Source: Pigoraptor vietnamica (Eukaryota > Opisthokonta > Filasterea). Taken from it: a stretch of DNA of 25,365 nucleotides. The stretch lies in NCBI GenBank assembly GCA_943704525.1, contig CALSCQ010001706.1, positions 1 to 25,365 of the forward strand. Reading direction: 5' to 3'. Of the stretch, positions 1,220-25,224 are shown one piece after another. The position numbers were made by a program, and so were the translations under genes. The notes under the pieces were generated by a model that was not told the origin of the DNA, did no database searches, and was given only the letters and a program-made list of their open reading frames with translations. Each line of letters opens with the position of its first letter. The first letter of the stretch is position 1.

Positions 1220-1448
1220 GGCGAATCTGAAAGGTCGACGGATGCGTTACGCCCAGTGGAGTGCCAAGCGCCGTCAAGGCACAGTTCACGCCATCGCCGC
1301 AAGCGTCTGTCTTCTCACCCACGTGCGAAAGTGAACGATGTCTGTGCAAAGCATGCAATGGTGGTTTTTTGTGTATTGTCGGCGTGCACGTGCCGCGGAC
1401 TGAGCCGTACCTGTCCGAGTAACATGGCAGCTCCCATTCGGCATCCCA

Positions 1449-3074: not shown

Positions 3075-3493
3075 TCGTGTCGGGCAATTTCCCAATTGGC
3101 AATACAAAGGGGAACGCGCGATCATGCCAAAAATAAATCTGACTGTGCAGACATGCATCCAAAAGAGGAAAGGGTCGCTGCTCCCCAAGCCGACCTCAAC
3201 GGGGGTGTTAGCAGCATGCAGGCGTTTGTGTAGCCAATCAAAAACCTTTTTTCAGTCCGAAATAAACTGAACAGCAGTGCTGTCGTCGAATGCATAGAAG
3301 ATTCCATACTGTCTCGGCTGACCGAAAATTATCTTCCCAAAGGACGCCTCACGGCAGGCTCGCGTGATAACAGTGAGCATTCGTGGCCCAACGTACTTGT
3401 GTGAGGCCAGTGATGGGATTTCCGCGTTTTGTAAAACGGTGCCCCTTCCGCGCCGGCGGCTGGTCGAGAGGCCGCAGACGCCCACCAACCGAC

Positions 3494-6400: not shown

Positions 6401-7663
6401 CTCTCGAGCGACCTTGATCTCATGAACGCAACGACCATGTCCGTCATGGACATCGATGGCAACATACAGAACGCGACCTACCCGAGCGTCGTCCCAGAGC
6501 TCTCCATCGACGGCGCGCGTTTTGCCGCCTACGCAAAGACCTTTGCCGCAACGCTAGACAACGCCACCGACGCCGTGAGCCCGGAGACGATCGACAGCTT
6601 CGTCGAGCTGGTCGTGACACTCAACACGTACATGCGCGTGTGGCAGACGGAGGCGGTGCGCGGGCTGGGATGGGACAACGCCCGCGTCCTCGACACGGTC
6701 GCCCTCGCGCAGATGACGACGTTTGACTTTGACCGCATGCTCGCGGCGTACTCGCGCAAGATGCAGAGCGTCGCCTTCCGCACGATCGAGCAGATATCGC
6801 GCCAGGTGCGGCAGCTCCGCTACCTCTGTCTCGACAACTCGCTGGTGGCGGACGAGCTGTCCGCGCTCCCGATCACGTCGTCCCTCTCGTCCGTCGACCT
6901 GCGCACGCTCAAGGCCGCCGTCCAGTCGTCGTATCTCAGCTGCCTCACGACCCTCCCCGTCGTGAAGAACACGCGCACGGTGACCCACGAGTTCACCGTC
7001 GACGACGCCCCGGACAGCTTTGCGAGCCTCCGCACGACCGGCACGGCCGTGTTCGTGGTCCCCGTCCCGCCCACCTCTCGCTTTGGCCGCGCCCGCCTCG
7101 TCAGCGCCTCGGTCTACGTGTACCCGGCCACCATCGACGACCTCACGCCGAGCACCTTCGTGCAGCTGGACTTTTGGAAGCTGCCTGCGTCGTACTTTTT
7201 CGACTACGCGGGCGCCCGGTGGCCCTTCCTGCACACGAAGGCGTCGGCGTCGTTCAACTACCAGGCGACGACGTGCGCGCACCAGTCGGAGCCCGTGTTC
7301 GACGACAACACGCGCGTCAGTTACAGCCCGTACGGTCCCTGGAAGGTCCGCCTGACGCGCCCGCAGCCCGTCAACGTCACGGCAAGCCGCATTCGCGCAG
7401 TCCGCTTCCAGTTTGTCGTCGCGTTTGCGCAGGTGGATGCGATGGGGAGCGATCTCGACGTCATGGAGCAGCTGAAGGCAGACACGAACACGTGCCCATC
7501 GAGTGAGTGTGCCGGACACTGCAAACGCGGCTGAGTCTTTCGAAAAGTTTTGCGACATGGTAGTCGTGTGAAAATTCTCGTCGTAAGTTCGTGGGGTTGT
7601 TCTTGTGTGCTTGTGTGTGTGTGTGTGTGCGTGTGTGTGTGTGCATATGTGTGTGTGTGTGTG

Positions 7664-7696
<33 letters not shown>

Positions 7697-10255
7697 GTAT
7701 GTGTGTGTGTGTGTGCGTGTGTGTGTGTATGTGTGTGTGTGTGTGTGCGTGCGTGTGGCGTGTGCGTATGTGTATGTGTGTGTGTATGTGTGTGTGTGTG
7801 TGCGTGGGGGGTGGGGGGGGGTTGAGTGTTTGCTGCGATGTGTGTGAGTGCAGGTCGATTGATTACGTCCGGCACGCAGATTGCGACGATACCTGCGCCA
7901 CGTGCACGGGGTCGGCGGCCACGCGGTGCCTCACGTGCGCGTCCAGGCTCGTGAAGGCGCTCAACGGCACATGCGTCCCGTGCCCTGCGGCAAAGTATTA
8001 CGACGCGCTGACGGCCTCGTGCCAGGGTGGGGCGCTTGCTTGTTGTGTCTGCACTTCTCACTTTCTCACTTCTCACTCGGAGTAACACGTGCAGACTGTT
8101 ACGCGCCCGCCTGTGTCCGCTGTACGGGTGCGCTGCCCTCGCAGTGCACACAATGCGCCGGCAGTCTCACTCTCGGTGACAGCGGGTGCGCCTCAACGGG
8201 CTCTTCTTCCACTGCCCCTGCAAGCAGTGCAACGCCCGCGCCGTCCTCTTCGGTCGGCACCGGCGGCAGCATCTCGATCGCCGCGCAGAGTCCCACCCCC
8301 GCTGCGACGCCATGTGCCGCGACGACTGTTTCCGTGACGACCACCGTCACGGTCCCTGCTACAACGACGGCGACAGTGACCGTGACCGCGCCCACAGTAA
8401 CGGTGACGGCGCCTCCCGCGCCGCCGCTCACTGCGACGGTGACTGTGACGGCAGTTGCGACTTCCACGGTCACGGTTACGCCGTTCTCGACACCCCTGTT
8501 GCCTGCGCTGGGCGCCGTCTGCCCCGGGGACCCCGTCGCACAGAGCAGTTGCTTCGGTGAGTAACGCACGTCACATGGGACGATCCGTGCGTGTATGGAA
8601 GGTTCTGAACAGCCACCTCTCGTGTGTGGCCGATTGCCGAGATCCCGTGAGACTCAAGCGCGCATGTCACGCGTAGGTCTGACGCTTGCGGTGGCGGCGG
8701 ATGCCAAGACGGTTCGCTTGCAGCGCGTGAATGGCGCCATCGAGAACTGGTGTCCGTGCGCGGGCGGGTCTTGCGGTGCACCCACAACTGCCGCGTCGTC
8801 CTCGAAGCAGGCGGCGACGAGTGTCCCGCCCACGCCAGGTGCGTGTCGTTGGTTTGCACGTTTCGTAGCGGTCGAATGCCGTCAGTCGTATCTGTGTAGG
8901 GATGTGCGTCTGTGCACGCGTGCGTGTGCGTGTGCGTGTGTGTCTGTGTGTCCGTGCGTATGCCGCTTCCTGCGTGCGTCGAACCTCACCCTCCACTTTT
9001 CGTCCGCGCAGTCAATTGCGTCGTCACCGAATGGACAGCGTGGAGCGATTGCACTGCGCTGTGTGGACAGGGCCAGCAGACACGCTCGCGCACCGTGACG
9101 ACGCCCGCCGCGTACGGTGGCACGTGCGTTGCCCTTGACGAGACGCGCGCGTGCAACGTGGCTGCGTGCGTCGACTACACCGTCACGGCGATCACGAGCG
9201 CCGCAAACGACGCAGGGACCTCCGCGAATATCACCGTGCGGGTTGTGGGGTCGACGGGCCTCTCGACGCCGCCCATTACGATCGCCGGCGGTGCGTCTGC
9301 GAGGGGCGTCGCGAGCGTGTTTGCGGCGGATTTGCCGGACGTCGGAGACGTGACCATGCTCGTGGTGTCTGTGGGTTCGGATGACGACACGTGGCACTGC
9401 GACGCTTTCGTGGTCGCTGTGAAGGACGCGACGGTGGTGTTTTCGTGCGGCAGCAAGTACATCGACCGGACGCCCGTCTCCCTCTTGTCGCCGTCGGCGC
9501 GCGGTGAGTATGCCTGTCGTGTGCGATGCACGTGCGTTTGAAAAGCCGGAAATAACCCACCGTTTTCCCTTCTCCATCCGCTTTCCGTCTCTTTTTTGCC
9601 TACGCTTTCAGTCGACTGCGCCGTGACGGAGTGGACGCCGTGGTCGCGCTGCACGCGCTCGTGTGGCGGCGGCACCCAGTCGCGCGTGCGTAATGTCACG
9701 AGGGATGCGTCGAACGGCGGAGCGGCCTGCCCGAACCTCGTGGAACAGCGCCCTTGCAACGTGCCCGCGTGCCCTGGTGAGCCTGATTTTGCGAGTGTAT
9801 GTGCGCACACACGCTCTTGTCCACTCGCTTGCACGCCCACGCTCTACGACCACACAGACGCGGCAGACAAGCACAGGTGTGGCGTTGTGTTTATTGACTT
9901 ATCGCTTCTTCGGTTCCTTTGCGCAGTCGCGACGTACACGATCACCGTCGTCACAGCGAACGTCGCGGGCGCCGGCACCGCGGGGGCCGTCAACTGCATT
10001 GTTCTCGGCGAGTTGGACGACACGAGCGACGTCATGAACGTGGCGGGCTCCCTTGCCGCGGGGACGACGTGGAAGTTCCAGCGGTCAGGCAGCAAAGTGA
10101 CGGCGATTACGGGCCTTCTCGTGCAGGCCGTCCGCGCCGCCGACCCATGGACGTGCGTGTCCGTCGCCGTGTCCGGTCCTGGAATGCCCGCTGTTACGTT
10201 CCTGTGTCCCGACACGCCCATTGCCGTCGACTTTGTGCCCCTGCGGCGCGCTTGA
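3494..10255 (+). CDS. Large secreted mosaic protein: EGF-like x5, EF-hand loop, Cys-rich region, TSP1-PLAT x2 (nine exons, complete)
   Basis: Exons: 3494-4564, 4678-6228, 6401-7502, 7880-8026, 8095-8556, 8677-8838, 9012-9503, 9612-9776 and 9927-10255. They sum to 5,481 nt (1,826 aa plus stop). Introns 1 and 2 are phase 0; introns 3 to 8 are all phase 1. The ATG at 3494 opens a signal peptide (MAAPRATVGVIMALTILSSV...). Residues ~118-340 hold five EGF-like domains, most with the Ca-binding opener (D)INEC. Residues 358-874 are mainly helical, with a canonical EF-hand loop (DTDGNGNVSPSE, 586-597), an amphipathic Gly/Ile/Lys segment and an R5 run at 853-857. Residues 875-1241 look helical, then beta-rich. 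Exons 4-5 are Cys-rich (growth-factor-receptor type), followed by a TV-rich stalk. Residues 1499-1717 and the C-terminus form TSP1-PLAT-TSP1-PLAT. No C-terminal membrane segment is visible, so secretion or matrix/cell-coat attachment is likely. The ligand and role are unknown. Confidence 0.85.
7611..7810 (+). repeat. (TG)n microsatellite inside intron 3 of the secreted-protein gene
   Basis: About 200 bp of interrupted (TG)n with TGCG and TATG variants, followed by a G-rich run, lies inside the 377-bp intron 7503-7879. It makes this the longest intron of the gene and opens spurious Cys-Val frames. Confidence 0.95.
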
Positions 10256-10388
10256 ATCCGGTCGCGATTAACGACCCTCTGCGTCAGCGTAACTTCGTAT
10301 TCTTACTTTTTTATTTATCTTTCCGTCGTGTGTATATACGGTTGCTTTTGTCTCACGGTCGGCCCAGTCAAGCGCGTGCGAGTGTGTT

Positions 10389-10412
10389 CACTGTATGTAA
10401 AAGTCGGGCCTG
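10389..10412 (+). repeat. Left terminal inverted repeat
   Basis: 24 bp, identical to the reverse complement of 22491-22514. It begins CACTGTATG and ends GTCGGGCCTG. That last block resembles the subterminal motif, so the transposase-binding site may extend into the TIR. Confidence 0.93.
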
Positions 10413-10545
10413 CGCGATCGGACTTTTTGGTCGGACTTGGGTTGGGTTGTCGGGCCTGAAAGCTGGCCAAATCACAAAATTTTTCAGTTCGCTCAGGTCC
10501 GACTCAGCGGACCTGAAGCCCCCCCATCGACCAACCTGAAGTTGC
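10413..10545 (+). repeat. Left subterminal motif cluster
   Basis: Related motifs are GTCGGGCCTGAAAG (near 10449-10462), AGGTCCGAC (10495-10503), GGACCTGAAG (10509-10518) and CCAACCTGAAG (near 10531-10541). They share a (T/G)CGGRCCTGAAG or CAACCTGAAG core that also appears at the right end. Clustered subterminal repeats bind transposase in CACTA-type elements; here that role is inference. Confidence 0.6.
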
Positions 10546-10568
10546 CAAAAATAGCACGCGTTGACACG

Positions 10569-10603
10569 ATGAAAAGCCACGCGGTCGCACAACATCTTTT
10601 CAT
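10569..10603. promoter_or_regulatory. Inverted repeat ahead of the plus-strand transposon gene
   Basis: Perfect 8-bp arms ATGAAAAG (10569-10576) and CTTTTCAT (10596-10603), with a near-copy ATGAAAGG at 10616-10623, lie 23-57 bp before the first ATG. The arms could be an operator-like binding site or a 5' leader hairpin. No experimental analogue is known to me. Confidence 0.35.
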
Positions 10604-10625
10604 GGTGTCGCCTTTATGAAAGGAA

Positions 10626-12034
10626 ATGGAACATCAAATGTCGTCCGAAACTGAGGCGCGTCAGGAAGAGGCGCTTGTACGCGTCTTCCTAAGGACTCGT
10701 CGCCCTAAACTTAATGATCTAGTCTCTTGCACGAACGACCCCTTGAAGGTAACGGTGCGGCCGGCCGTGAAATGTCCGCGGTTGAGGCTAGGTTTGTTCC
10801 TCACAGCATCGTTCTCCCTCACTCTCAGGCCTTGAACCGCCTCGGCCAGTGGCGGTTCCAAATGCGCAGACGACTCATAGAGACGATTCATGATCGAACT
10901 CCGGAGGGTTTTCTCAGGATGTGTGCGAGTAACCCGGAGGTTATGGCGGCGACAATTTTTGGAAAACGGTTTTATCGGGTCGCAGCATCGAGCGCAACGG
11001 GTGTGGCATCAATGCGTGCTATTGTTGCCGGGGTAAGTCTAACGTCGCTTGAAGCTGCACCATATATTGTTGTCTGACATCGCTCTGTTCGGTCCGTTGA
11101 TTTTCAGATTCGTCGTGAACTTCATGCGTTTCTCGAAGCGACGGGTAGCATCGGCTCGGAAACTGACTTGAGCGCCTTCCTGACGACCGTTCTCGAGACG
11201 ACGGACAGTTCCACGCGCGATATTGTGCCGGAGCCGCGCAGCAGTATCGAACATTCGACATCGCCACGGGACGCGACACCGGCGGCTGACAGTCGTACCG
11301 CAGCTGAGTCCATGGACGCGAGCGATGTCGTCGTGAGTTCAGCGGGGGGAGAGCGGCTGACTGCGACCGAGTTCCCCACAATTTCTTGTGCGTTTCGCCG
11401 ATGTCGGTCGAAGATTTCATTGTCTCTCTACCGCAATCGTTGGGAGGAAGGAGATTACGTGCCTTCGTTTCTCAAATTCTTCTGCGATGTCCATGCGCCT
11501 ATGGACGCGGCTTTGGAACGGCGCCATGTATCCGTACTGTTGGACGAATATTTAGTTGTACTCCGATCGGCAGCAAGCTTTCGTATGGAGGTAGAGACGT
11601 GCGCATCGATGCCCAATGTTTCTGGAATCACGGCCGTTTTCTTCGGAGTTCAGTTTGCGTTGCGACATTTGCGACGAAGGACGAATAGCGTCTCCGTGCC
11701 GGCATGGGTCGATCATCAGCACCTAAACGGTATTCTTCGCGATTATCTGTCCCATGCCCGTATGTTCGATCATGTGCGTCGAGTGGGAGATCTCTCCGCG
11801 GAGGATTGGAGTGTGGATGTGTTAAGGCCTTGCAATATCTTGAAGGCATTCTCTGTGCGCCTAGCTACATGCTTCGCTCTCGGGACAAACGATAGTGGCA
11901 CCGTTCGCCTCGGCGATTGCTTCTTGCACGAGCGACGTTCTACCGACTGCCCACATGCATACGTGTTTTGTTTGCTTCCTTTCGCCGCGGCTGCGCCAGC
12001 GTATTGTGCGGTCCTAAAAAGAACGTACGAATGA
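10626..12034 (+). CDS. Transposon-encoded protein of unknown function, 417 aa, three exons
   Basis: Exons 10626-10748, 10829-11032 and 11108-12034 join in phase 0 at both junctions (donors GTAACG and GTAAGT; acceptors CTCTCAG and TTTTCAG). Introns are 80 and 75 bp. A second in-frame Met at 10638 is an alternative start. The N-terminal third is Arg-rich and helical. The middle (around RDIVPEPRSS to SSAGGERL) is Ser/Thr/Asp-rich and probably a linker. The C-terminal half is a compact mixed region with many hydrophobic residues and several Cys, starting near CAFRRCRSKISL. I see no zinc-finger array, catalytic motif or known domain. It sits just inside the left TIR and converges on the Lys/Ala-Tudor gene with a 58-bp gap. 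It may be a second protein needed for mobilisation, as in two-gene CACTA elements, but that is analogy only. Confidence 0.75.
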
Positions 12035-12092
12035 CACGACATAAATTGTCTCGTCTTTCAAAATGGCCGCAGTCAAATTGGGTCGGTCAAAT

Positions 12093-15000
12093 TTACTGCT
12101 CATCGAATCTGCTAATCTCTCCTTGCGTTACCCAGGATTCAGCGTTGTCGCGATCAAATCGCACGAGCGCGCTCCCTGGAGACCGTGCCTCCCTCTTGAG
12201 CATGATAATCCGCGCTGGCTCAACAGTCACACCTTCAATTTTAGAATGGAAAGGACAATAAGAGACCATAGACGGACGCCGAAATGAGCGGCTAGAAGTG
12301 CCGAGCAGGTAACACAACTGACCTCGTAACGCCATAACCGTCTCGTTTCGCTTTAGAGGCACACCCGTCGATATGTGCTCCAGAACGGGCCCATACACCG
12401 ATTCATCGGACTCCTTGCGCGAAAGTCCATCGGTACCTGTGGCCGGCGCCCGCATCAGTGCGTGTGTTCATGACGTCAGAAAACAGCAAGGCAAACTGGC
12501 TCGGCGGCGCCAATACTAAGCATACCGTCAGTTCTGATGGTCTGCGTTTGACCCTTCCAGCCGATAAATCGAATCGTCGTCGTGACTTCACTTGTGTCGT
12601 CCAAAACAAGCGCTTTGTACCACGTAATGTCATCGGGGCAAGACACATCGACGGCATCGATCACATCGCCAACTGCCGAGACAGCAATCAACTTAGATTG
12701 CATTCGTTCAACGCACGTGCACGACTCGAAAGGTAACAATGTACAAAATTATACCTTTGAGGTCGCCGTCGTTACGAGTAGTTCCTGCACCGAGTAACAC
12801 ACGCTCGTTAATTACAACAAACAGATTCGGTTGCGGCCGGGCGCCGGCACCAGTGGTCAGCACAAACCTGCGGTGCAAAGAAGCTTCCTGGGACGCCGGG
12901 CCGGGCTCGTACTGGATTTCCGCTTGCTTGGCCTTCGGTTGCTCCTAGTGGCTTCGGCTGGCATGCTGCTTGCGGGCCCGTCCGTGCCTGATGTCCCGAC
13001 AGCCGCGTGCTTGAGCTTCCGCATATTTGCGGCAGCCATTCCTGTCTCGTCCAAGACGGCACACTTCCGCTTGCGCATGCTGGTCGCATCTGCCACGGTT
13101 CCCGCCTCATTGACGACCACGGCGTGCTTGATCGCGCCTGCCGCCTTGGTCGCACTTGTCTCGTCCGCGCCCGCGGCGTGCTTGATCGCGCTTGCCGCCT
13201 TGGTCGCACTTGTCTCGTCCGTGCCCGCGGCGTGCTTGGTCGCGCTTGCCGCCTTGATCGCGCTTGCCGCCTTGGTCGAACTTGTGTTGTCCGCGCCCAC
13301 GGCGTGCTTGATCGCGCCTGCCGCCTTGGTCGCACTTGACTCGTCCGTGCCCGCGGCATGCTTGATCGCGCTTGCCGCCTTGATCGCGCTTGCCGCCTTG
13401 GTCGAACTTGTCTTGTCCGCGCCCACGGCGTGCTTGATCGCGCTTGCCGCCTTGGTCGCACTTGTCTCGTCCGCGCCCACGGCGTGCTTGATCGCGCTTG
13501 CCGCCTTGGTCGCACTTGTCTCGACCGCGCCCACGGCGTGCTTGATCGCGCTTGCCGCCTTGATCGGGCTTGCCGCCTTGGTCGCGCTTGTCTCGTCCAC
13601 GCCCGCGGCGTGCTTGATCGGGCTTGCCGCCTTGGTCGCGCTTGTCTCGTCCACGCCCGCGGCGTGCTTGATAGCTCTTGCCGCCTTGGTCGCGCTTGTC
13701 TCGTCCGCGCCCGCGGCGTGCTTGATCGTGCTTGCCGCCTTGGTCGGGCTTGCCGCCTTGGTCGCGCTTGTCTCGTCCGCGCCCACGGCGTGCTTGATCG
13801 CGCTTGCCGCCTTGGTCGCACTTGTCTCGTCCGCGCCCGCAGCGTGCTTGATCGCGCTTGCCGCCTTGGTCGGGCTTGCCGCCTTGGTCGCACTTGTCTC
13901 GTCCGCGCCCGCGGCGTGCTTGATCGCGCTTGCCGCCTTGGTCAGGCTTGTCTCATCCGCGCCCGTGGCGTGCTTGATCGCGCTTGCCGCCTTGGTCGGG
14001 CTTGCCGCCTTGGTCGCACTTGTCTCGTCCGCACCCGCGGCGTGCTTGATCGCGCTTGCCGCCTTGGTCGGGCTTGCCGCCTTGGTCGCACTTGTCTCGT
14101 CCGCACCCGCGGCGTGCTTGATCGCGCTTGCCGCCTTGGTCGCGCTTGTCTCGTCCGCGCCCGCAGCGTGCTTGATCGCGCTTGCCGCCTTGGTCGGGCT
14201 TGTCTCGTCCGCGCCCGCGGCGTGCTTGATCGCGCTTGCCGCCTTGGTCGCGCTTGCCGCCTTGGTCGCGCTTGCCGCCTTGGTCGCGCTTGTCTCGTCC
14301 ACGCCCGCGGCGTGCTTGATCGGGCTTGCCGCCTTGGTTGCGCTTGCCGCCTTGGTCGCGCTTGCCGCCTTGGTCGCGCTTGTCTCGTCCGCGCCCGCAG
14401 CGTGCGATTGCAATCCGTCCGCGCGGCTGTGTCGTGGAGTCACATTCCCGCTATCGCTGCACGAAGGCCGTCTCATTCAGACATCACAGTATAATAGAAA
14501 TTGCGACTCTCCTGCTTACCTTTCCTTGGGGCGACAAGTATCACTGAAGCGGAGCCCTGAGCGGCCCCGTTCTCGGTCGCGGTTGCAACCATCATGATCA
14601 TGACAACGGCTACTCGGTTCGCGGCGGTATTCCCGGTCATTGCTTCGTTCGTGACGGTCCGGATCTCCCCATCGTTCGCGGTCATGCGCAGAGCGGTCGT
14701 CGCGATGGTCGCGCTTGTCACGATCATTACGCCTGTCGCGGTCAACACTGGCATGTTGCCCGCGGTACTCATTATCGTCGAGCCGGCCGTCGTGCCGATC
14801 GTCACGCTGCTGACGGTCGCGCCTGTTCCGGTCGTCATTGGGCAGCTCCTCATCACGCATGGCTCGGGCGTTGCGCCCTTCGGGGTCGTTGCGCCTGCAG
14901 TCACGATCGTCGCGTTGCTCACGCTCTTCATGGTCGCGCTGCTCACGATCGCTCCGCCTATCGCGGTTGCGGTCGCGCTGCTCGCGGTCGCGCTGCTCGC

Positions 15001-16830
15001 GGTTGCGCTGCTCGCGGTCGCGCTGATCCGTGCGGTCGCGCTGCTCGCGGTCGCGCTGATCGCGGTCGCGCTGCTCCGCTCGCGCTGCTCGCGGTCGCGC
15101 TGATCCGAGAGGTCAGCCAGGTCGCGGCAATCCCTTTCCCCGCTCCGATTAAACTCCTCGTCCAAATTTCCTGAACGTTGGCCATGTTCCAAACCGGTTC
15201 GATGAGTCGCCGCTGGCCTTGTCGAGCCGATCTTATCCTGCAGTTGGAATGTACGGATAGGAGATCAGCCACCTCTTCACAGAAACAGCACAAACATCGC
15301 AAGATTATGAGTTGTGCGACGAAGCATTTCACCGTTCGGTCCGATACGTACGAGACGGCGAAATGTTGTTGGCACGTGGCGAACAGCCCGAGCTGCAATG
15401 CGACAAACCGACCATGGCCCTTGCAGAATATCGCTTTCCACAACGTCCATCCGCTCCTTCGTGTGTATGATAACTCTGCACGATTCCGCCGTCCCTAGAG
15501 GCGACGATTTCAGAGCATCGTCAATGATGCCCGCGCACTTCGAAAAATCGACAACTATTTCCAGACGATTCGCGTCCAGCAGCCGTGGTTCGACAAGAGC
15601 GGCGTGAAGATCAATAGGGCACCACAGCAAGTCCAAAAAGATCTTATCAGCACAGTTCGGTGCCCTCGATTCGATCGTCACGGGCGTTACGTCGTAAGAA
15701 CCGCGCGGCAGTTGCCATTCATACGTTGTGTCGCCATTACTGTCAGTTGACGGGACGAAGCTGTGCAGTGACGCGGAGTCCTCGCTGGTGCGCAACGTCG
15801 AAGTCGGCACCGAGGACGATAACGCTGCGCGCGGCGGGGGAGCGGACGAGCCGGGCGGCGACTGCAGTCCAACAGAATATAAATCCCTGCCCGAATCAAC
15901 ATCAGTCTGCCAGTCTGATGACGGCGACACCGTCCGTAGCACCTGGACGACTGCGGCCTCCGGGAAGTGCCCCTCCAGTATTGTACTCGCCGCGTCGCCG
16001 CCACACTGGCTCAGGCTGCGCAAAAGTCCCAGCGACATCGCCGTTAAGCGCGGTCTCGAAGAGAATTTCTTACAAATTGACCCGAACTGCGCGCGAACAA
16101 AAGCAGAGTATTCGGCGCCGCGCTCCTCCGCAAGAGCGACCCAATCGATCTCAGCGCCATCAGACTCGGGCAAATGGAGGCCCAGCCCAAAATGCTTCGA
16201 CCGCCAATTCCCATTCTTGGGGAACGAATATTCCGCCGCCGCAGCCAGGTTATGCGCCTCGTAATAACGCCTCTTGAAGTCAGCCGGGTCGGGATGAGAA
16301 GTAGGCGCGCCATCATCGGCCTCTACGCCCGCTCGACGAGCGCCGGGTGCGCGATTGCTCTCCGACGTCTTCTTCGCGCCCACTCCATAAAAAGTCTCGC
16401 TCGCGGTGGAAACGTGCATTCCGAGCCCGTTCTTGTACTCCATCTTGAGGCCCCTTCGTACGCCCAGAGGCAGCACGGCCGCCAATATAGCAGCCAGGTC
16501 GCTCTTGGAGGCGGCATTAACGTGCGAATTCGACGAGACCTCGTCGGTAAACTTGCAGTACAGCGAGAGAAGGAGAGCATAAACGCGAGTGGAGTCCTTC
16601 ATCTGCGTCGACCAGTAGTCGTTGGGAAGTGGTACATAGTACCCGCCGCAGCTCGGTCGTCCCTGCGGTTGCGGAGGTGGAGTGCACGTCGCGCCAGGCG
16701 GCATTCTCGTGTCAGCCGCGGCGCCGTCGTTAGGCCGACGGCCCGTGCGCTTATGCGATCCACCGAGACTAATGTCCCACGCTGCACCTGCAGATACGTA
16801 CGTGTCTACACTCTCTCTGAAGAGTGGCAT
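12093..16830 (-). CDS. Transposon-encoded Lys/Ala-repeat protein with RD/EQ repeats and C-terminal Tudor-like segments (six exons, probable frameshift)
   Basis: Proposed exons: 16830-15352, 15237-14520, 14456-12868, 12784-12755, 12672-12526 and 12436-12093. Residues 1-493 match nothing I recognise; they include a helical block (DSTRVYALLLSLYCKF) and Ser/Pro-rich linkers. Exon 2 encodes an Arg/Asp/Glu/Gln repeat (units like QRDRE). Exon 3 encodes about 20 copies of an 18-, 24- or 30-residue unit of the type HAAGADETSATKAASAIK, with Lys every six residues, like histone H1-type tails. Exon 5 (VGDVIDAVDVSC...WYKALVLDD...IRFIGWKG) fits a Tudor/MBT-type fold. Exon 6 ends with ALVRFDRDNAESWVTQGEI, also Tudor-like. 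Junctions agree in phase except inside exon 2, where the frame changes near 15075-15085, consistent with a 1-nt deletion. The likely role is DNA or chromatin binding for the element. Exon 6 is the least certain. Confidence 0.65.
13106..14405 (-). repeat. 54-bp coding minisatellite (18-residue Lys/Ala repeat)
   Basis: About 20 head-to-tail units lie here, most 54 bp, with extra 18-bp hexapeptide blocks (e.g. ATKAAS, PTKAAS) making 72- and 90-bp versions. Because length steps are multiples of 18 bp, the frame is kept. Units nearest 13100 decay into HAVVVNEAGTVADATS and then CAVLDETGMAAANMRK, showing older diverged copies at the protein's C-terminal side and homogenised ones at the N-terminal side. 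The repeat has few stops in any frame, so other frames also appear open. Confidence 0.9.
14955..15112 (-). repeat. Short-period repeat encoding Arg/Asp/Glu/Gln runs
   Basis: Interleaved CGCGACCGCGAGCAG-like 15-mers (read on the minus strand) encode RDREQ units. One unit near 15075-15085 reads CGCGAGCGGAGCAG, one base short, which is where the reading frame of the gene changes. The product is a highly charged, probably disordered segment. Confidence 0.75.
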
Positions 16831-16910
16831 GGCGTCAAGGTGTGGAGTTACGTGATCACGGCATGGAAAAATAGTCGTCCAGTTTTGGGCGGGAAAATCA
16901 AAATGTGATG

Positions 16911-17010
16911 GGGATTGTTGCGAATTTCTTGAGATTTTTACGATTTGTTGCGGATTTTTACGGATTTTTACGGATTTTTACGAATTTTTGCGGATATTTA
17001 AGGGATTTTA
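16911..17010. repeat. 10-bp tandem repeat with phased T tracts (likely curved DNA)
   Basis: Ten consecutive 10-bp blocks fit in register, the best being three exact CGGATTTTTA units at 16951-16980, with variants on both sides. T-tracts recur every 10 bp, close to one helical turn, an arrangement known to curve DNA. The block lies 81-180 bp upstream of the start codon of the Lys/Ala-Tudor gene, so it probably forms part of its promoter. Confidence 0.75.
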
Positions 17011-17349
17011 GTCTCCATTACGTTAGGGCTACAATCCCAACTGTACGCCACATTTCCTACGAATTTGGGTAGGGTTAAGCGAACGCGACCAAATTGTGTG
17101 CAGCGAAAAATGCACGAAGTACCGCAAGTTAGTACAAACTTTCATTTCTGATCAGTCCTACACTCGTCTGACGACGACTCTCGCACTGCCATTAAAATAA
17201 AATGTTGCGCTGACGCCGCCGGGCCGAGACAGTCACTATTGCTGTCGACGAGCCGGACAAAAGCTTCAATAAAATATTCACGATGACTGTCAGCTGTGCG
17301 CAGCCGCAGCCCGCGCCCCACCCCACCCCATCGCGCCCGCCCCTTGCCG
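17011..17349. other. Intergenic spacer between the two minus-strand transposon genes
   Basis: This holds the 3' side of the 1,320-aa protein gene. A minus-strand frame crosses it in a different phase from the ATARG tail but has no start or splice link, so I do not call it coding. No gene is seen. Confidence 0.5.
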
Positions 17350-20300
17350 TCAGGTCGCGCCCCTTTCCGTCGCGCCCCTCGCCGTCGCGCCCCTCGCCGT
17401 CGCGCCCCTCGCCGTCGCGCCCCTTGCCGTCGCGCCCCTCGCCGTCGCGCCCCTCGCCGTCGCGCCCCTCGCCGTCGCGCCCCTCGCCGTCGCGCCCCTC
17501 GCCGTCGCGCCCCTCGCCGTAGCGCCCCTCGCCGTCGTGCCCGTCGCTGTCGCGCGTGCTGCGCGTCCCCTTCCAGTCCCCCGTCCACCGCGGCGCCGAT
17601 TGGCCGCAGAGCGTTGCCGCGCCATCTCTTCGTCCGTCAGCGGAGGATTATGACGGATTTCCGCAAACGTCGACAATCCTCTGAGGCGTTGTAAGAGGTC
17701 GGGCGTGAGGGGATGTTCAACGGCAGGGTCTCCGTCAATCCCGCGCGCAGAGTATGCTAGCGGCTTGTGCCTCGAAGCGTCCGTACAGAGACAGAAGAAT
17801 CTCACGGGGGTTCCGCCGGTGCCACTCTTCCCCTCCGCACACGTGAAATGAAGATGCGCACGAGCAAGCAAGTCGTCCGGCAGCTCACCGGTCGACGCAC
17901 TAGCGTTCGCGCTGGTGCTCGCGAGCAAAACGGCGTCACACGCGAAAAGGTCCGACTCCTCTTCGGAAATCTCTTCAACCGCCTGAACCGCTTGCGAGAG
18001 CGAGAACCCACTCGACCGAAAGGCGCAGGGCGCAAACTGGATGTCCCCTACGTCTCGGTCGCACCATATGGAACATTACAACAAGTACAAAGTCGCGACA
18101 TCGGTGAAATTGATACTCACCGAAAGTCGGAACCGTGGCGTGCTCCCATAGACTCCTTTTCGACTGCAGCCGCTCACCGCCGCCATGCCCACGGCGCGCT
18201 TTGGCAGCATCGAGAAGCTTACCACGGAGAGCGCAGAAGAACGCATGTGCCCGTATCTTCGCGAAGTTCCCGCGTAGTCCTTGGAAAACGCGAATCAAAC
18301 CCTTGTGACGCCCGATCAAGCTCTCTATCCCATTTTCGTGGGCGGCGAGCATCGGAATCGGAAACTTCCGCAAAAAGCGCCAGTGATGCGCAACGAGGTT
18401 GTGGAAATATAGAGACGAGAGAAGGGAATGCAGCAATTTCGCTGCGTGCAAATAGGCAACTGAAGCTCAGCACAAAACTCATAGGCCAGCAGAAGTGCGA
18501 CTGACGTACCGAGAGTCGTCATGTTTTTCGTCGACAGAGGTACAGACGTCCCATAACGGTCGTCAACGGTGGAGGGCACACGCACGGAATCGTGCTCGTC
18601 GCCAAATGCACCCCCTCCGCCGTCCAGCTCCGGATCGCTGTCATCGCCGGCTTCGCCAGTATGATCCTCTTCGGTGCTCGTCGGCGGCGGTCCGCTTAGC
18701 GCCTCACCAATGTTGATGTTCAGTGCGGCGAAATACGTCTCAAAGCAATCGGCAGGGACGGTCGGATCCGCGATATCTGAGGAACAAGGCAAGCCATCAG
18801 GTAAGATACACATTTCGCATAAAAGATGCAAAACATTACACACACGCACCAGCCGAGTACGTGAATTCCGTGGGGGCCACACATCGCCCTCGACTCCTTG
18901 AAGAAATGCACACTACACCGCTTCGCTCACTCGCATCATCAGGCAGCGCCGCCGTAAGCACGGCAACGTAGCGGGGACACGCTAGCTCAATCGACGCAAC
19001 CCGCAGACCACAAACGACGACTTCCAGGCTGTTATCGTCACTGTCGCACAACCAGTCACCAATAATTTCGAGCCAATCGCCACCTTGACGACACCCACGC
19101 GTCATTGAGATGGACGAAATCGAAGCCGCTGGGATGGTACGAAAATGCAATCAGGGAAGCCGTGCACAAATCAGCACACGATAAAGCATACATACCCCTC
19201 ACTATCGTGAACGCGTCCTTCAGCAAGACAAGCGTGCTGTTGTTACGCTTAATCGCGAGATCGCGGGACGCCACGAGGCCCGCCAATCGAAAGCTATCCA
19301 CCTGCTGAGCCTCCTCTTCCCCAAGGGCGACGTGTACGAGCAGGGATACAACCGTGTCGCTGTGCTCGATAACCTTTGCGACCGTCAGCCCCTCAGCGAC
19401 AACCGCACTCGGGTCGAACGAAAGCAGACCTTCGCCAGAGAGGTACACGACGTGCTCGCCGTTGTTTACAAGACGACGCGGCTCAACACCTGCAAGTAAA
19501 AATCCATCCTTTGTCGCGAGGCCTGTAAGAGAGGCGCGGACATAAGCAAATGTCTGCATGCATTCAAAGCAAACGCAACGGCCGCCTACAAAGATGCAGA
19601 CCTGCTGTGCTGGGCAACTTAGTGCCCGCCGCAACCTGCATCAGCGCCCAATTCGCGAAATATACGCTGCAGAGCATCGATTGAACCCAACGATGCGCGT
19701 GCGGATAGTTGTCATTGTAGCCCGTGACATCCAATATGCGCAGGCACTCTAGCATGTCGCGATCCCGATCGAGAAGTGGGATGGACGGTTGATCGGTTGG
19801 GCGCAGGGCTTTCGGGGCCCTGTCGGGACGACACCTAATGTTAGTGACATAAAATATTGGCTCCAAACTGCACAGATGAGTTCACTCACAGTGCGAGGTA
19901 GAGACGAAAGTAGGTGCCATTCTGCTTCTTGAGGGGCACGCCCACGGGCAGATTCATCTTCTCGCAGCGAACTCGAAATTCGGTCGCTTGTGCCGCTGTT
20001 CCACCGGCCAACTTGATGAGGTCCGGCAGAGCCTTTCCCACAATGATCTTCGTGACCGCCATGACATTGTGTAGAATACTCGGCGCCGCCGAGCAGTGGT
20101 CCACGTACTCCTGACCGTCGAGAACGTTCATAGCGTCGGGTGGGAGAGCGTCTGGATTGAGAATCCCGCCGGACTTGGCGCCGTTGCACCGAAGTTGTAG
20201 CGAGCGAATGTGGGCCTCGCGCTCGGCGACTGTAGCCTGTGTGGCAGCCTCGGACGCTGGAAAATCCGTCATTCAAGGTTCAGCCCAGTCATTTTGCATA

Positions 20301-21997
20301 GAACAGGTCTGGAATTAGAACAGCCGACAGAGGCAACTCACCGAGATAAGCCTTTTTGAGTCCTTGAAACGCAATGCCGTCCCTACGGATGTCCGCAAGT
20401 TCCACGACCTTCGCCTTCGGGATGACCGCGATCCCACCCCACTCAGTCGAGCGGAGGGAGCACCCATCACACCTGCAAGCCGGCCGCTGATCAACGTATG
20501 CCTACTAACATGATTGCATACCGTGCAACCAGTATAGAAGAACTGCGTACCTCGAAAGCCCCTTTTTTTCGAAAAGGATCTGGTGCATCTTGTTATCCTT
20601 ACACAGAATGACATGAACGCACCGGAACGCAACTCTGAGGTGCTTGAATTCGTCGGGGAGGTTCACGGCGGCCAGCTCATAGAGCGACGCCAATGGCTTG
20701 TGAAGCTCGCTGATGAAGAGTGGAACGTACTCGCCAATGTTCTCCTCACGCGCATTGATCTCAACGAATGGCACGGTGTCTGCACCAAAAGGATAGAATT
20801 CAGAGGATGCTGTCGTGGGATGCTGACACATTGCACGGTACCGTACATCGACGGACATTACGGACTCACCCGAGCGCCCTCCTTTAAACAAGAAGGGAGT
20901 GACCTCGACGATGCTCCTCGTGATCATTGTTGTAGCAGCCGCTCGTCCTGCAAGTGCTCCGTCGACGGACACGACGTCGAAATACGGCACGATGAGCAAG
21001 TTGTCGTCGTCAATGCCCTCGTCGCCGTCCAGCCGCAATTGTGCGAAGCGGCGTTGAAGCCACAACGGCATCAGTTCGAGCGACGGAAGGTTGACCGTTC
21101 CCATATTGGGCCGTGGCCCGTTCAGCCCGACACTGAGTAGCCGTCCCGTGATGCCGGCGAGACGGATAATGAACTCGATGACGTCGCGGTAAAGGTCAAC
21201 GATGATGATGCGGTCGCGGAAGGCGGGGTTGTTATAGTTCAACTTTGACCCGGCCGGCATGCCGTGCTCTATGGCGCGCGAAATGATCGTCGGCGATACC
21301 GTTCGAGCGGCCTGAAGGTTCGAAGGTGCGCCGACTCCGATGTCGTCGCGATCATACGACTCGTACATGATCTGAAAGACAGAAAAAATAAGTCACGAGG
21401 GACCAGTTGCGCTAAGAAAACACCGGCAATGCATATACGGGAGCAACATACCAGACTGTCGTCGATAAGACGTTGCCTGGCTGTACCGCATCCAAGAAGG
21501 TGTATCTTGTCCGCGTACAACGCCTGCAACGCTCGCCTGTATTCGCGAAGGGCCGCCACCGATATAGCGCGAAGTTCCTTCTCGCGGTCGGCGGAAATCG
21601 TCGAAATAATGTAGTACTTGATGCGATCGGCACTCCAATTACGCCTCTCAGAGTCGGACAGCGCCCGATTGAGCCACTTGCGAAAACTCTCCTCGCCGAG
21701 TCCAGCGGCGTTGTGGTACAAGTCATCGCCAAACGCATCGTTCATGGCGTTCCATGTATCGCGGATGGGCGATTTCTTCGAGGTGGAGTGGAAATAACGT
21801 CCCAACGCGACTGCGACGCATGGCTGCAGCGCGTCGTGATCGAACGCAGCGCCGAATTCGTTGTCGCAGTCTTCAGCGCGAGACGAAAAGCTGGGGAAAA
21901 CCAGACGTTTGTCGGGCGCATCGGGCACGCGAACCTCAACCAGAAGATGTCGCGACTTTACGCGCACCATACCCAAACGCGTATACTTCTGGGACAT
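17350..21997 (-). CDS. Putative transposase of the element, 1,320 aa, ten exons
   Basis: Exons: 21997-21452, 21371-20551, 20472-20342, 20256-19890, 19819-19666, 19601-19196, 19083-18850, 18776-18510, 18459-18121 and 18047-17350. All nine junctions agree in phase and the total is 3,963 nt. I do not recognise the family. Transposase-like features by inspection: a hydrophobic strand ending in Asp (LLIVPYFD, D314) followed by VSVDG; a second strand with Asp (VHVILCKDN, D441) followed by R-CDGC (Cys457, Cys460); a Cys-rich patch CIFVGGRCVCFEC (exon 6); and a His-rich helix FHNLVAHHW leading into HENGIESLIGRHK (E1017, E1021). This order, D...D-CxxC...large insert...H-rich...E, recalls RNase H-fold cut-and-paste transposases such as CMC and hAT. 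Catalytic assignment is inference. The C-terminus is an ATARG repeat ending at TGA 17352-17350. Exon 9 could instead begin at about 18441. Confidence 0.75.
17356..17550 (-). repeat. 15-bp minisatellite encoding ATARG repeats
   Basis: About 13 units of a 15-mer (plus strand GCGCCCCTCGCCGTC) encode Ala-Thr-Ala-Arg-Gly on the minus strand as the C-terminal tail of the putative transposase, preceded by an RRRGGRGTGRGRAARA-type basic stretch. In a second frame the same repeat would give RRGAR units; I prefer ATARG because it continues the upstream exon to a stop. Confidence 0.88.
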
Positions 21998-22390
21998 TCT
22001 TGCAGCCGGGATCCGCACCCTGCATCTTTGTGTGAGTGTGCGCCCTTTTCTGAGTTGGGCGCGGCTTTTAGGCCGAACAGGGGCTAAATTTAGTGCAATC
22101 GGACCTGGGCGCTTGCCTTTTTGGGATATCCTCAGGCCCCCCCCTGGCTCGTCGTGCGAGGTCCGCTCGCTTTCGCCGTGGTCCGCTTCGACTTTTCTCC
22201 CACAGGTGCGCAGTCAATTAAGCTGGTAGGAGTCTTCGCACACTCCCCCTGCGTCTATGTACAAAAAATTTCGATGCGCACCCGTGGGTATTTTTTTCTA
22301 GACGACCTCAAGTGCCGAGTAGTCGTCCTTGACTACCTATCACGATGATCCACACGTGGGGCTGATCAATACATTCACTATGGATCAGGC
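21998..22390. promoter_or_regulatory. Upstream region of the putative transposase gene
   Basis: No credible gene lies here. It must contain the minus-strand promoter. A copy of the subterminal-type word (ATCGGACCTGGG) occurs near 22098, so motif copies extend inward from the right end. Confidence 0.4.
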
Positions 22391-22490
22391 TACCCGTGAC
22401 CAACCAATTGACCAACCTGCAAGCTGGGTCCAAATCGGACCTGAAGGTCCAACCAAATGGTCCGAGCTAACCTAAAAGGCCGTTACTCAT
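22391..22490. repeat. Right subterminal motif cluster
   Basis: It contains GACCAACCTGCAAG (about 22409-22422), TCGGACCTGAAG (22435-22446) and TGGTCCGA (near 22458-22465). These match the words found inside the left end, in both orientations, and support the element's boundaries independently of the TIRs. Confidence 0.6.
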
Positions 22491-22514
22491 CAGGCCCGAC
22501 TTTTACATACAGTG
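22491..22514 (-). repeat. Right terminal inverted repeat
   Basis: 24 bp, the exact reverse complement of 10389-10412, ending ...CATACAGTG. The host sequence resumes with TTCCCTATC. Confidence 0.93.
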
Positions 22515-22659
22515 TTCCCTATCAGCTTTCCGTGTCTTGGCCATTGCAAACGCCAACAAACACACAGCCTTTCTACCGTGGAGAACAACACCATGCGCTC
22601 AGACAACGCCATTGAGGACGTCAGTTAGGCTGCCAGTGGGCTGGTGACCTCGCACAGCT
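22515..22659 (+). promoter_or_regulatory. Short host spacer between transposon and SET gene
   Basis: Only about 145 bp separate the right TIR from the proposed SET-gene start codon. The native promoter of that gene may therefore have been cut off or displaced by the insertion, or may lie within this spacer. No clear TATA box is visible. Confidence 0.4.
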
Positions 22660-22816
22660 ATGTGCATCCTATCAGCCGAATCCATTCGCCGTTATTTCTA
22701 CGCACGCATTGTTGGCGATGCACCAACATTGCGTCTCTACGCCCTCCTTGCAACATGGGTGCTACTGCCACTGGCCGCGACGGAAGAATGTGTGTGTGTG
22801 TGTGTGTGTGTGCGTG

Positions 22817-22870
<54 letters not shown>

Positions 22871-22902
22871 TGTGCGTGTGTGTGCGTGTTTGTGTTTATG
22901 TT

Positions 22903-22982
<80 letters not shown>

Positions 22983-23403
22983 CGTGCGCAATTCAATTGT
23001 AGCTCAAAGTACTAACGACATTTCGCAGACGTCCCTTCGCAGCCTCGTGAGAGTAATGCCGCCATCGAGTCGTATGTCCATTGGTTCCACGAGCGAGGGG
23101 GTCGTCTCGCGGGCGTGTACCCCAAACCATCGGCAAAGGGCGGGCTGGGCATGTTTGCGTCGCGTCCCCTCGAGGTGTGTGGTGCCTCGTTGTGTGTGTT
23201 TGCGTCAGTATGTGTGTGTGTGTGTGTGCCAATCTTCATTTTGCGCGTGTGCATGTGCGTGTATGTGAGGCGACTGTACGTGTGTGAGTGTGCATGTGTG
23301 TGTGTGCGCGTGTGCAATGTGTGTATGTGCGTGTGCGTGTGCAATGTGTGTATGTGCGTGTGCGTGCGCACGCGTGTGTGCGTGTGCAGTGCGTGCGTGT
23401 ATG

Positions 23404-23443
<40 letters not shown>

Positions 23444-25224
23444 GTGTGTAGATAACGTACAGTCTTACACTCAATCTCTCCTTCGCGTCATTCCGCGTGC
23501 AGATCGACGAAGCCTTCGCAGAGGCGCCCGTTTCCCTCATTCTGTCCGAGCGCACTCTCGACGAAGAGCTGGACGACGAGGGCTTCTGCGACCCGCTGAC
23601 GCTGTGTGTCGCAAGCGCAAGACACGCCGACGTCCCCTCGGGCGCCTCCTACGCACCGCCGGGGTGCGCAGAGTGGGCGCCGTACTTTTCAATGCTGCCG
23701 ACGCGCGTGGTGTCGGCCGTCGATTACACTGGCGAAGAGATGGAAGGACTGCATGGGTCGATTGCACGGAAGCGCTTTCACGAGCGAAAGGAGCTTGTGC
23801 GTCTGCAGCACGGTGAGTCTCACCCACAACTGAGCCACCAGTGGAGGTCTCTAGTTTCCCTCCTTTTGCACTCACACACACACACCTGTGTGTGTGTCCT
23901 CTGGGCACGCACTCACGTTGGACCACCCTCGCGCGACACTCTGTTGTTTTCCTGAAGCGCCAGGCCCGCTTCTCACATGTTAACGTGACTGCAGCGTGGT
24001 GCGATCGTATCCTGCGACGCGCCGGTCGCGCTGTGCCGGCAGTGGACGCTTGGCGATGGGCGAGTGCAATTGTGTACAGCCGCTCCTTTGGGGTGCCACT
24101 CGGCAAGTACAAGAGCACCACGATACTCGGTGCGTGCGGTGTGTCGGCTCTAGTGTGCGCGTAACAAGGGCATGCGCATGTGTGTGTTTGGGGGTGGGGT
24201 GGGGACTGTCCTAATCGACCAGTGCTTGCCGTCATTGTTTGTGCATTCTGGTGCTATCGTGTAAACATTATCGCACATTGTCACATTTACCCCCCCCCCC
24301 CCCCCTCTCACATACACGCACCAACCTCTCCTTCAGCCCTCGTGCCGTTGATTGACCTCCTCAACACGGAGGGCTACAGCGCCCGGAATGCGCGCTGCGC
24401 ATTGGACGCCAAACGACAAGTGTTCTCGTGCCGCACAATTCGTCGCGTCGACGAAGGCGCAGAGGTGAAGAGCGAGTGGATTGTCCTACTCTAGACAGCC
24501 GTGTAACTGTTTTGTATGAGTGCATTGGTCACATAACATTGTGTGTCGTTGACTCAGTCGCCAGGCTCTGCCACGTGAAATTGCCCACCACTCTTTCCGA
24601 CGTTTCGCTGTTTCCATCGTTTCGCTTAACGACGCCCTGTGCCCCTTCTTCAGCTGCTCATCTCGTACGGCGCCGGGTCTTCGAACGCGCGGCTCTTGAT
24701 GGATTATGGCTTTGTGTTGCCCGAGTCGCCCGAGCACGCGACAGTGCACGTGTGGCCGCCCCGGTTGCCCCAGGACGCGCCGCCGTGGGCCAAGAAGATC
24801 CTCGACGACTGCGAGCTGGCGCTGTGCGTATCCATGTCGCCCTGCTTATCGTGCCGGCACTGGCCTCTTGTTTACTAACGGGCCCTCAATCGAATGCCGC
24901 CTGCAGCGAGCTCAGACCCATTGGATTTGTGGCCCGCGCGCACGCGGTCGAGCGCTCATTGCTGGCCTATCTGCGCGTGTTACACGCTGCTCTCTCCGGG
25001 GTCGCCATACCCGATGCCTCGCCTGACTTGTGCTATGAGCTGGTACGTCAGCATTGCGTTATAACAAGGGATGCGCGCTGTTTGGCCAAACTGTGCATCG
25101 AACCCTTTGTTGTTTTGCCTCTCAGGAACGTGATCCCGTGCCAATTGTCGACGATGTGGCGCTGCTTCACGTCCGCTCGCTGCTCGGCAATCTCCAGGCA
25201 GAGTATCACAAGACGACAGTCGAG
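22660..25224 (+). CDS. SET-domain protein methyltransferase, SETD3/Rubisco LSMT type (eight exons, 3' end outside window)
   Basis: Exons: 22660-22789, 23029-23174, 23503-23812, 23995-24129, 24337-24464, 24654-24823, 24907-25042 and 25126-25224. All phases agree, giving 418 codons so far; a donor GTGTGT follows at 25225. The split-SET signature is clear: GGLGMFASRPLE near the N-terminus, EWAPYFSMLP (W150), SRSFGV (224-229), LVPLIDLLN (242-250), LLISYGAGSSNARLLMDYGF (284-303), then a helical Rubis-subs-bind-type domain. This family methylates Lys or His on proteins such as Rubisco, aldolase, ribosomal proteins or actin. The usual DxxNH motif reads DLLNT, so the His is missing, while the catalytic-type Tyr (Y288) is kept. 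Exon 1 encodes a hydrophobic leader (LRLYALLATWVLLPLAA) that could be a signal or transit peptide. Exon 1 is less certain than the rest; its phase fits. Confidence 0.85.
22790..22981 (+). repeat. (TG)n microsatellite filling intron 1 of the SET gene
   Basis: About 190 bp of (TG)n begin directly at the proposed 5' splice site (GAAGAAT|GTGTGT), so the donor is itself the first repeat unit and many shifted GT donors are available. The intron ends with a canonical TACTAAC branch site (23010-23016) and TTTCGCAG. Confidence 0.9.
23207..23449 (+). repeat. Interrupted (TG)n tract in intron 2 of the SET gene
   Basis: TG-rich sequence with TGCG and TATG variants and a short TATATATA core (about 23403-23410) takes up most of the 328-bp intron 23175-23502. 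Confidence 0.9.
23873..23898. repeat. CA/TG palindrome in intron 3 of the SET gene
   Basis: A run of CACACACACACAC is followed almost directly by a run of TGTGTGTGTG, making a near-perfect inverted repeat able to fold as a hairpin in DNA or pre-mRNA, about 60 bases after the donor. Confidence 0.7.
24290..24305 (+). repeat. Homopolymer of 16 C residues
   Basis: A pure C run lies in intron 4 of the SET gene, about 30 bases before the acceptor, so it forms part of the pyrimidine tract. Its length is likely to vary and to be prone to sequencing error. Confidence 0.9.

What the first reader, a model, noticed from the sequence alone, without database searches (positions are those of the whole stretch)
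10389..22514. A 12.1-kb transposon carrying three intron-rich genes, possibly a new superfamily
Perfect 24-bp TIRs bound three genes, each split by short introns that are phase-consistent across 3, 6 and 10 exons. The ends look CACTA-like, but none of the three proteins shows a family signature I can name. The combination of a large DDE-type candidate, a histone-tail-like Lys/Ala-Tudor protein and a third unknown protein is not one I recognise from any described element.
Basis: partly seen in the sequence, partly recalled or inferred. Interest (0 to 1): 0.93.

Follow-up and report, generated by a model that had tools for sequence, protein, structure and literature searches.

The report
Low-copy three-gene CACTA-like DNA transposon
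A 12-kb jumping gene in an unnamed eukaryote carries an intron-split candidate transposase and two further proteins; its ends and motifs resemble the CACTA/RAG group of transposons, but its proteins match no catalogued family that I could search, so it may be a new branch of that group.

Summary
The observation largely holds. The 24-bp inverted repeats (10389-10412, 22491-22514) are perfect, and a second, truncated copy lies on contig C102. Similarity between copies ends at the terminal repeat; flanks are unrelated. All three genes recur in the same order with dN/dS 0.25-0.53, so they belong to the element. Corrections: gene C has 11 exons, not 10; gene B here is frame-shifted in exon 2, while C102's reads through; the Tudor label found no support. 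Protein C (1294 aa) has the D..D-C(2)C..H..H(4)H..E layout of the CMCT clade (CACTA, Mirage, Chapaev, Transib/RAG1, Plavaka). Ends are CACTG..CAGTG with a possible 2-bp TT duplication; CGGRCCTG repeats lie only near the ends (7 against 0). No search linked protein C to a known transposase (Pfam, PDB, 5.8 billion proteins, viral and prokaryote contigs); A and B were searched less widely. Best reading: a low-copy cut-and-paste transposon, probably a new CMCT lineage. The clade assignment rests on motifs; structure prediction was never available.

The parts
10389..10412 (+). left terminal inverted repeat, 24 bp, CACTG...
   Evidence: 3 occurrences genome-wide at <=3 mismatches
22491..22514 (-). 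right terminal inverted repeat, perfect complement of the left
   Evidence: similarity to the C102 copy ends exactly here
10387..10388 (.). TT, left copy of a possible 2-bp target site duplication
   Evidence: sequence; a match by chance is about 1 in 16
22515..22516 (.). TT, right copy of the possible 2-bp duplication
   Evidence: sequence
10389..10838 (.). left terminal region with subterminal CGG[AG]CCTG repeats
   Evidence: 7 occurrences, both orientations, in the two 450-bp ends together (2 of them inside the terminal repeats), 0 in the 11,226 bp between; the motif was chosen by inspection
22065..22514 (.). right terminal region with the same repeats; outer 200 bp 91.5% identical to the second copy, above gene C exons (85.7%) and introns (57.6%)
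10626..12034 (+). gene A, exons 10626-10748, 10829-11032, 11108-12034; 417-aa protein of unknown family
   Evidence: exon 3 in C102: 72% aa identity over 292 codons, dN 0.186, dS 0.349
12093..16830 (-). gene B, exons 16830-15352, 15237-14520, 14456-12868, 12672-12526, 12436-12323, 12232-12093; conserved N-terminal part, RDREQ repeat, Lys/Ala/His-rich repeat, conserved C-terminal part; frame-shifted in exon 2 in this copy
   Evidence: C102 copy reads through as one 1253-aa protein; dN/dS 0.37 (exon 1, 491 codons), 0.26 (exons 4-6, 130 codons)
12868..14456 (-). gene B exon 3 with 18/54-bp tandem repeats coding ADETSATKAASAIKHA-type units
17350..21997 (-). gene C, candidate DDE transposase, 1294 aa, 11 exons: 21997-21452, 21371-20870, 20779-20551, 20472-20342, 20256-19890, 19819-19602, 19522-19196, 19128-18850, 18776-18510, 18441-18121, 18047-17350
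   Evidence: intact in C102 (1255 aa, 84% identity over 1248 codons, dN 0.089, dS 0.362)
20870..21371 (-). gene C exon 2: first candidate catalytic Asp (D314 or D319, PYFDVVSVDG)
   Evidence: aligned codons 300-450 have the lowest dN/dS (0.07) of nine segments
20342..20779 (-). gene C exons 3-4: second candidate Asp (D411) and C427-x2-C430
19890..20256 (-). gene C exon 5: conserved His (H532, SILHN)
18850..19522 (-). gene C exons 7 and 8: two possible Ig-like modules (weak Qn_am_d_aIII and TIG matches, both under the curated cut-offs), each in one symmetric phase 1-1 exon
   Evidence: Qn_am_d_aIII E 0.056 in copy 1 and 0.0025 as the better of the two copies; TIG E 0.11 in one copy only
18121..18441 (-). 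gene C exon 10: H969-x4-H974 and candidate catalytic Glu (E991 or E995)

Best explanation
This is a low-copy cut-and-paste DNA transposon. [quoted passage not shown] It would bind the CACTG terminal repeat and nearby CGGRCCTG sites, cut both ends and join them to staggered cuts 2 bp apart. Proteins B and A are accessory proteins of the element; the likeliest role is a TNPA-like end-binding or chromatin-binding helper. Shown: the ends, the second copy, three co-conserved genes under purifying selection, end-restricted repeats, the motif layout. Inferred: catalysis, DNA binding, the 2-bp duplication and the roles of A and B.
For: Perfect terminal repeats and a second copy with unrelated flanks ending at the same base. 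The order A(+) B(-) C(-) is kept in both copies, dN/dS 0.25 (C), 0.37 and 0.26 (B), 0.53 (A). The outer 200 bp at the right end are better conserved (91.5%) than gene C exons (85.7%) or introns (57.6%). CGG[AG]CCTG: 7 in the outer 900 bp, 0 in the inner 11,226. Among columns conserved in both copies there is exactly one C-x2-C (427) and one H-x3/4-H (969), placed as in the CMCT clade: 86 of 2000 shuffles fit the layout, 10 of 2000 with hydrophobic stretches before both Asp. CMCT criteria: C(2)C and H(3-4)H between second D and last E, CA..TG ends in most cases, 2-5 bp duplications (PMC12730594, passages). 2-bp direct repeats flank 7 of 14 copies of the animal CACTA element SmTRC1, whose transposase also has CxxC (PMC1636069, passages). 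TNPA binds subterminal repeats (PMC2613891, passages).
Against: No sequence-level link to any transposase. Pfam lists no transposase family at E<=10; PDB gives only unrelated chance-level hits, best E 0.17; hhalign against mouse RAG1 and a recalled plant CACTA sequence is negative; the local alignment to RAG1 is reached by 58 of 1000 shuffles (42 of 1000 for copy 2) and pairs the wrong parts. These tests are weak: the profile holds two close sequences, and RAG1 itself finds the Transib structure only at E 0.01. The motif layout was chosen after seeing the sequence. Only one copy has both ends; the duplication is 2 bp at most. No structure, no RNA, no empty site. Gene B is broken in this copy, or misassembled.
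Confidence: 0.74

Rival explanations
1. A transposon of a new superfamily outside the CMCT clade: the C(2)C/H(4)H layout is coincidence, and protein C is a DDE or other enzyme of separate descent.
For: No profile, PDB-sequence or word search found a relative of protein C. 86 of 2000 shuffles also fit the loose layout.
Against: Only 10 of 2000 shuffles fit with strand context; CACTG ends, a possible 2-bp duplication and subterminal repeats point the same way.
Confidence: 0.17
2. Transposition is catalysed by another protein: gene A or B is the catalytic one and C is accessory.
For: Catalysis by C is not shown; A and B are also conserved, and I looked for a DDE layout in C only.
Against: C has the lowest overall dN/dS, with its most conserved stretch around the two candidate Asp. 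B is largely repeats between two conserved parts.
Confidence: 0.06
3. Not mobile: a duplicated host gene cluster bounded by chance inverted repeats.
For: Only two copies, and one end of copy 2 lies off its contig.
Against: 24-bp perfect repeats have a chance expectation of about 1e-6; the boundary of similarity coincides with the repeat; the outermost 200 bp of the right end are better conserved than exons.
Confidence: 0.03

Closest known systems
EnSpm/CACTA elements, including animal SmTRC1 (PMC1636069), soybean Tgmt* (PMC2613891) and the Capsaspora CACTA families (PMC4007536); passages seen
   Same: CACT(G) ends, several-kb size, intron-rich genes, subterminal repeats, a further protein besides the transposase, CxxC in the transposase, 2-bp duplications in SmTRC1
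   Different: No Transposase_21 (PF02992) match; three genes; about 540 residues between C(2)C and H(4)H; at most 2-bp duplication against 3 bp in Tgmt* and Capsaspora
Transib/RAG1 (PMC4411706, passages seen; RAG1 residue numbers recalled)
   Same: D, D, C(2)C, H(4)H, E order; CA..TG ends; one or a few autonomous copies per genome
   Different: 5-bp duplication is not present here; no significant sequence similarity to mouse RAG1; insertion far longer (RAG1 length recalled)
Plavaka, ESTA, Lanisha (CMCT lineages in PMC12730594, passages seen)
   Same: C(2)C and H(3-4)H motifs; 2 or 3 bp duplications in Plavaka
   Different: Plavaka ends are TGT..ACA or CATCA..TGATG; ESTA duplicates TA; no Pfam transposase match here; Lanisha was not compared
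KDZ (Kyakuja, Dileera, Zisupton)
   Same: large elements that can carry further genes (recalled, and TET/JBP in PMC12730594)
   Different: Zisupton makes 8-bp duplications (PMC12730594, passages); no KDZ (PF18758) match in protein C

Membership tests
[quoted passage not shown]
   D314/319, D411, C427-x2-C430, H969-x4-H974, E991/995, identical in both copies; 86 of 2000 shuffles fit, 10 of 2000 with strand context. That these residues are catalytic is not shown.
[quoted passage not shown]
   CACTG..CAGTG
[quoted passage not shown]
   TT/TT flanks one insertion; a 2-bp match has about a 1 in 16 chance; no empty site
[quoted passage not shown]
   Structure prediction was busy at all 20 attempts (first, last)
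EnSpm/CACTA | Transposase_21 (PF02992) or other recognisable EnSpm transposase similarity | tested here: not met
   no match at E<=10; hhalign to a recalled plant CACTA sequence, probability 0.3%. The genome search with PF02992 rang nowhere, controls included, so it is uninformative.
EnSpm/CACTA | subterminal repeats, direct and inverted | tested here: met
   (motif chosen by inspection)
EnSpm/CACTA | second, end-binding TNPA-like protein | not testable with these tools
   proteins A and B exist; binding untested, and TNPA-type proteins share little sequence (PMC2613891, passages)
Transib/RAG1 | 5-bp target site duplication | tested here: not met
   left GTGTT, right TTCCC
Transib/RAG1 | sequence similarity to the RAG1 core | tested here: not met
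KDZ | KDZ domain (PF18758) | tested here: not met
   no Pfam match at E<=10; the genome search with PF18758 rang nowhere, controls included, so it is uninformative
KDZ | 8-bp target site duplication (Zisupton) | tested here: not met
   the 8 bases on either side differ

The most novel reading that the evidence does not exclude
A superfamily-level transposase lineage of the CACTA/RAG1 group whose long insertion between the zinc-type C(2)C and H(4)H motifs has taken up two Ig-like (IPT/TIG-like) modules, each encoded by one symmetric phase 1-1 exon, as in exon shuffling, and which moves with two co-evolving helper proteins, one bearing a histone-tail-like Lys/Ala repeat.
Probability: 0.35. Interest if true: 0.7.

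Novelty: new variant of a known kind. Interest (0 to 1): 0.52.

Why it matters
The CACTA/RAG1 group includes the ancestor of V(D)J recombination, and its deep branches are thinly sampled outside plants, fungi and animals (general knowledge). An element with an intact candidate transposase, no relatives found, two extra proteins and a transposase of unusual build would widen that group. It would also allow tests of what the insertion domain does, and of how low-copy multi-gene transposons persist: two copies about 0.36 synonymous substitutions per site apart both keep an intact gene C.

Tried and rejected
Weak genome hits for protein C at C773 (E 0.025) and C1225 (E 0.044) were examined. The first lies in a frame that looks like an oxidoreductase by eye. 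The second lies in a 206-aa frame overlapping a 501-aa frame that looks like a membrane protein. Both were rejected as chance. A third, gene B exon 1 at C919 (E 0.42, two stops), was not followed.

RAG1 kinship by direct alignment was attractive by eye at H(4)H-E but fails shuffling and hhalign; kept as a motif-level resemblance only. Exons 7 and 8 of gene C were tested as duplicates of each other: no support (150 of 1000 and 735 of 1000 shuffles reach the score). The Tudor domain of gene B: no support. Other Pfam matches seen and set aside: GETHR (E 1.1e-6), HC2 (0.0022) and Pentapeptide (0.071) on the repeat tail of protein C; DUF963 (E 4.7e-8) on an RDSTPL repeat and zf-CCCH_3 (0.027) in gene A of copy 2; DCAF4, TraM, UL31 and SH3_7 matches at E 0.05 or worse. 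The repeat matches reflect composition; none bears on the transposase.

Limits of the negatives. The protein database was asked only with protein C: one search used an earlier 1329-aa model (10 exons) and scored the 8000 candidates sharing most words; one search also scored 8000; one search had 40 candidates. Viral contigs were asked with gene C exons 2-3 including the intron, protein C by two peptide patterns and gene B exon 1; prokaryote contigs with gene C exons 2-3 only. Gene A was asked only of Pfam and of the own genome. Phage, plasmid and E. coli collections and metagenome contigs were not searched. Host identification failed: the 18S query did not complete. An empty site could not be sought, as no relative of this genome is held.

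Literature: in ten searches I found no description of such an element in the listings, or in the passages of the six papers opened: searches (2 papers; 3; 18; 20 of 241 listed; 0; 15; 12 of 20; 15 of 1,421; 3), 111 (1). One open-access library is held and Repbase is not, so this does not show absence from print. No paper was read whole.

Full report
What is there. The window is contig C693 (25,365 bp) of an unnamed 32.5-Mb assembly of 1395 contigs. A perfect 24-bp inverted repeat bounds 10389-22514. With up to 3 mismatches it occurs three times in the genome and its control never: both ends here, and one end at C102:10794-10817 with one mismatch. About 1e-6 such perfect pairs are expected by chance in a window of this size under uniform base use.

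Second copy. C102 (10,964 bp) carries a second element that begins inside gene A at the contig start and ends at its terminal repeat at 10817. Similarity to the window ends at that base; the 147-bp flank of C102 resembles neither the window flank nor any other place in the genome. The missing left end of copy 2 was not found elsewhere in the assembly. Gene A exon 3, gene B exon 1, gene C exons 2-3 and gene C exon 10 gave strong matches only in these two copies. The weak extra matches (C773, C919, C1225) have E 0.025 to 0.42; the two that were examined look like chance.

Gene models. Comparison of the copies fixes the exons. Aligned gene C exons are 85.7% identical and introns 57.6%. Copy 2 encodes an intact 1255-aa protein C; over 1248 codons aa identity is 84%, dN 0.089, dS 0.362. 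Of nine segments the lowest dN/dS is in aligned codons 300-450. Gene A has 3 exons and 417 aa; exon 3 compared over 292 codons gives dN 0.186, dS 0.349. Gene B has 6 exons. The C102 copy reads through as 1253 aa; the window copy has a frame-shifting difference in the RDREQ repeat of exon 2, which is either a real lesion or an assembly error in a repeat. Its conserved parts give dN/dS 0.37 (exon 1, 491 codons) and 0.26 (exons 4-6, 130 codons). All three genes therefore belong to the element and have been under purifying selection, weakest for A.

Ends. CGG[AG]CCTG, in both orientations, occurs 7 times in the two outer 450-bp regions (two of these inside the terminal repeats) and never in the 11,226 bp between; the motif was picked by inspection. 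The outermost 200 bp at the right end are 91.5% identical between copies, more than the exons, as expected of sites that the element's own proteins bind. TT flanks both ends; this is compatible with a 2-bp duplication but has about a 1 in 16 chance.

What protein C is. Columns identical in both copies hold exactly one C-x2-C (427-430) and one H-x3/4-H (969, 974). Before the first lie D314/D319 and D411, each after a hydrophobic stretch; between the two lies H532 (SILHN); after the second lie E991 and E995. [quoted passage not shown] Which of the histidines here answers to which there I could not check. Shuffling the conserved columns reproduces the layout in 86 of 2000 trials, and in 10 of 2000 when strand context is required. 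The criteria were set after seeing the sequence, so this is support, not proof. Direct sequence tests fail: Pfam at E<=10 lists no transposase; PDB gives only unrelated hits, best E 0.17; hhalign against RAG1 and a recalled plant CACTA protein is negative; local alignment to RAG1 is reached by 58 and 42 of 1000 shuffles for the two copies and pairs the wrong parts. For scale, RAG1 itself finds the Transib structure only at E 0.01. Three searches of 5.8 billion proteins with the full protein (earlier 1329-aa model), the D-D-C(2)C-H region and the H(4)H-E region gave no hit at E<=1. Viral contigs (and 108 for gene B) and prokaryote contigs gave none. These collections may hold few eukaryotes.

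The long insertion. About 540 residues separate C(2)C from H(4)H. Exons 7 and 8 weakly match Ig-like families: Qn_am_d_aIII at E 0.056 in copy 1 and 0.0025 as the better of the two copies, and TIG at E 0.11 in one copy only, all under the curated cut-offs. Both exons begin and end in phase 1. They do not resemble each other significantly. Two shuffled-in Ig-like modules are a hypothesis.

Mechanism. Most likely cut-and-paste transposition by C on the CACTG ends and subterminal repeats, with B and A as helpers. In maize Spm/En two proteins are needed and TNPA binds the subterminal repeats (PMC2613891, passages). Shown here: ends, boundary, two copies, three conserved genes, end-restricted repeats, motif layout. 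Inferred: catalysis, binding, helper roles. Low copy number fits what is reported for autonomous Transibs (PMC4411706, passages) and for transposable elements of Salpingoeca and Capsaspora (PMC6875170, passages).

Placement. It works like a CACTA-type transposon, and the CMCT criteria that could be tested are met or open. It is not filed as EnSpm/CACTA proper, because no recognisable Transposase_21 or EnSpm similarity was found, nor as Transib/RAG1 (no 5-bp duplication, no similarity), nor as KDZ. The host is a eukaryote, judging by its introns and by neighbouring frames with EGF, TSP1 and PLAT domains; it could not be named.

Noticed in passing
C102:10818-10964 (L012:818-964): The 147 bp beside the second copy's end look protein-coding on the minus strand by eye, so the element may have landed in a gene; no second place in the genome matches it.
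   Followed up: partly
window 16912-17009: AT-rich 10-bp tandem repeat (GATTTTTACG) upstream of gene B in an otherwise GC-rich element; a similar array stands at the same place in the second copy.
   Followed up: no
window 17354-17555: A 15-bp tandem repeat codes the TARGA-type tail of protein C (Pfam GETHR match); the C102 tail differs, so the tails evolve fast.
   Followed up: no
window 3377-10255: Left of the element lie frames with EGF_CA, TSP1 and PLAT domains; the element starts about 130 bp beyond the last stop.
   Followed up: partly
window 2-1246, minus strand: Frame with a weak UHRF1 tandem-tudor match (E 0.0073, below the curated cut-off); it lies outside the element.
   Followed up: no
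window about 7600-7810, 22790-22980 and 23390-23450: Long (TG)n tracts in the flanks, on both sides of the element.
   Followed up: no
L013 (C773) 487-1530, minus strand: Frame that looks by eye like the C-terminal part of an animal-type tyrosine kinase (recalled motif, no profile search), which would hint at a relative of animals as host.
   Followed up: no
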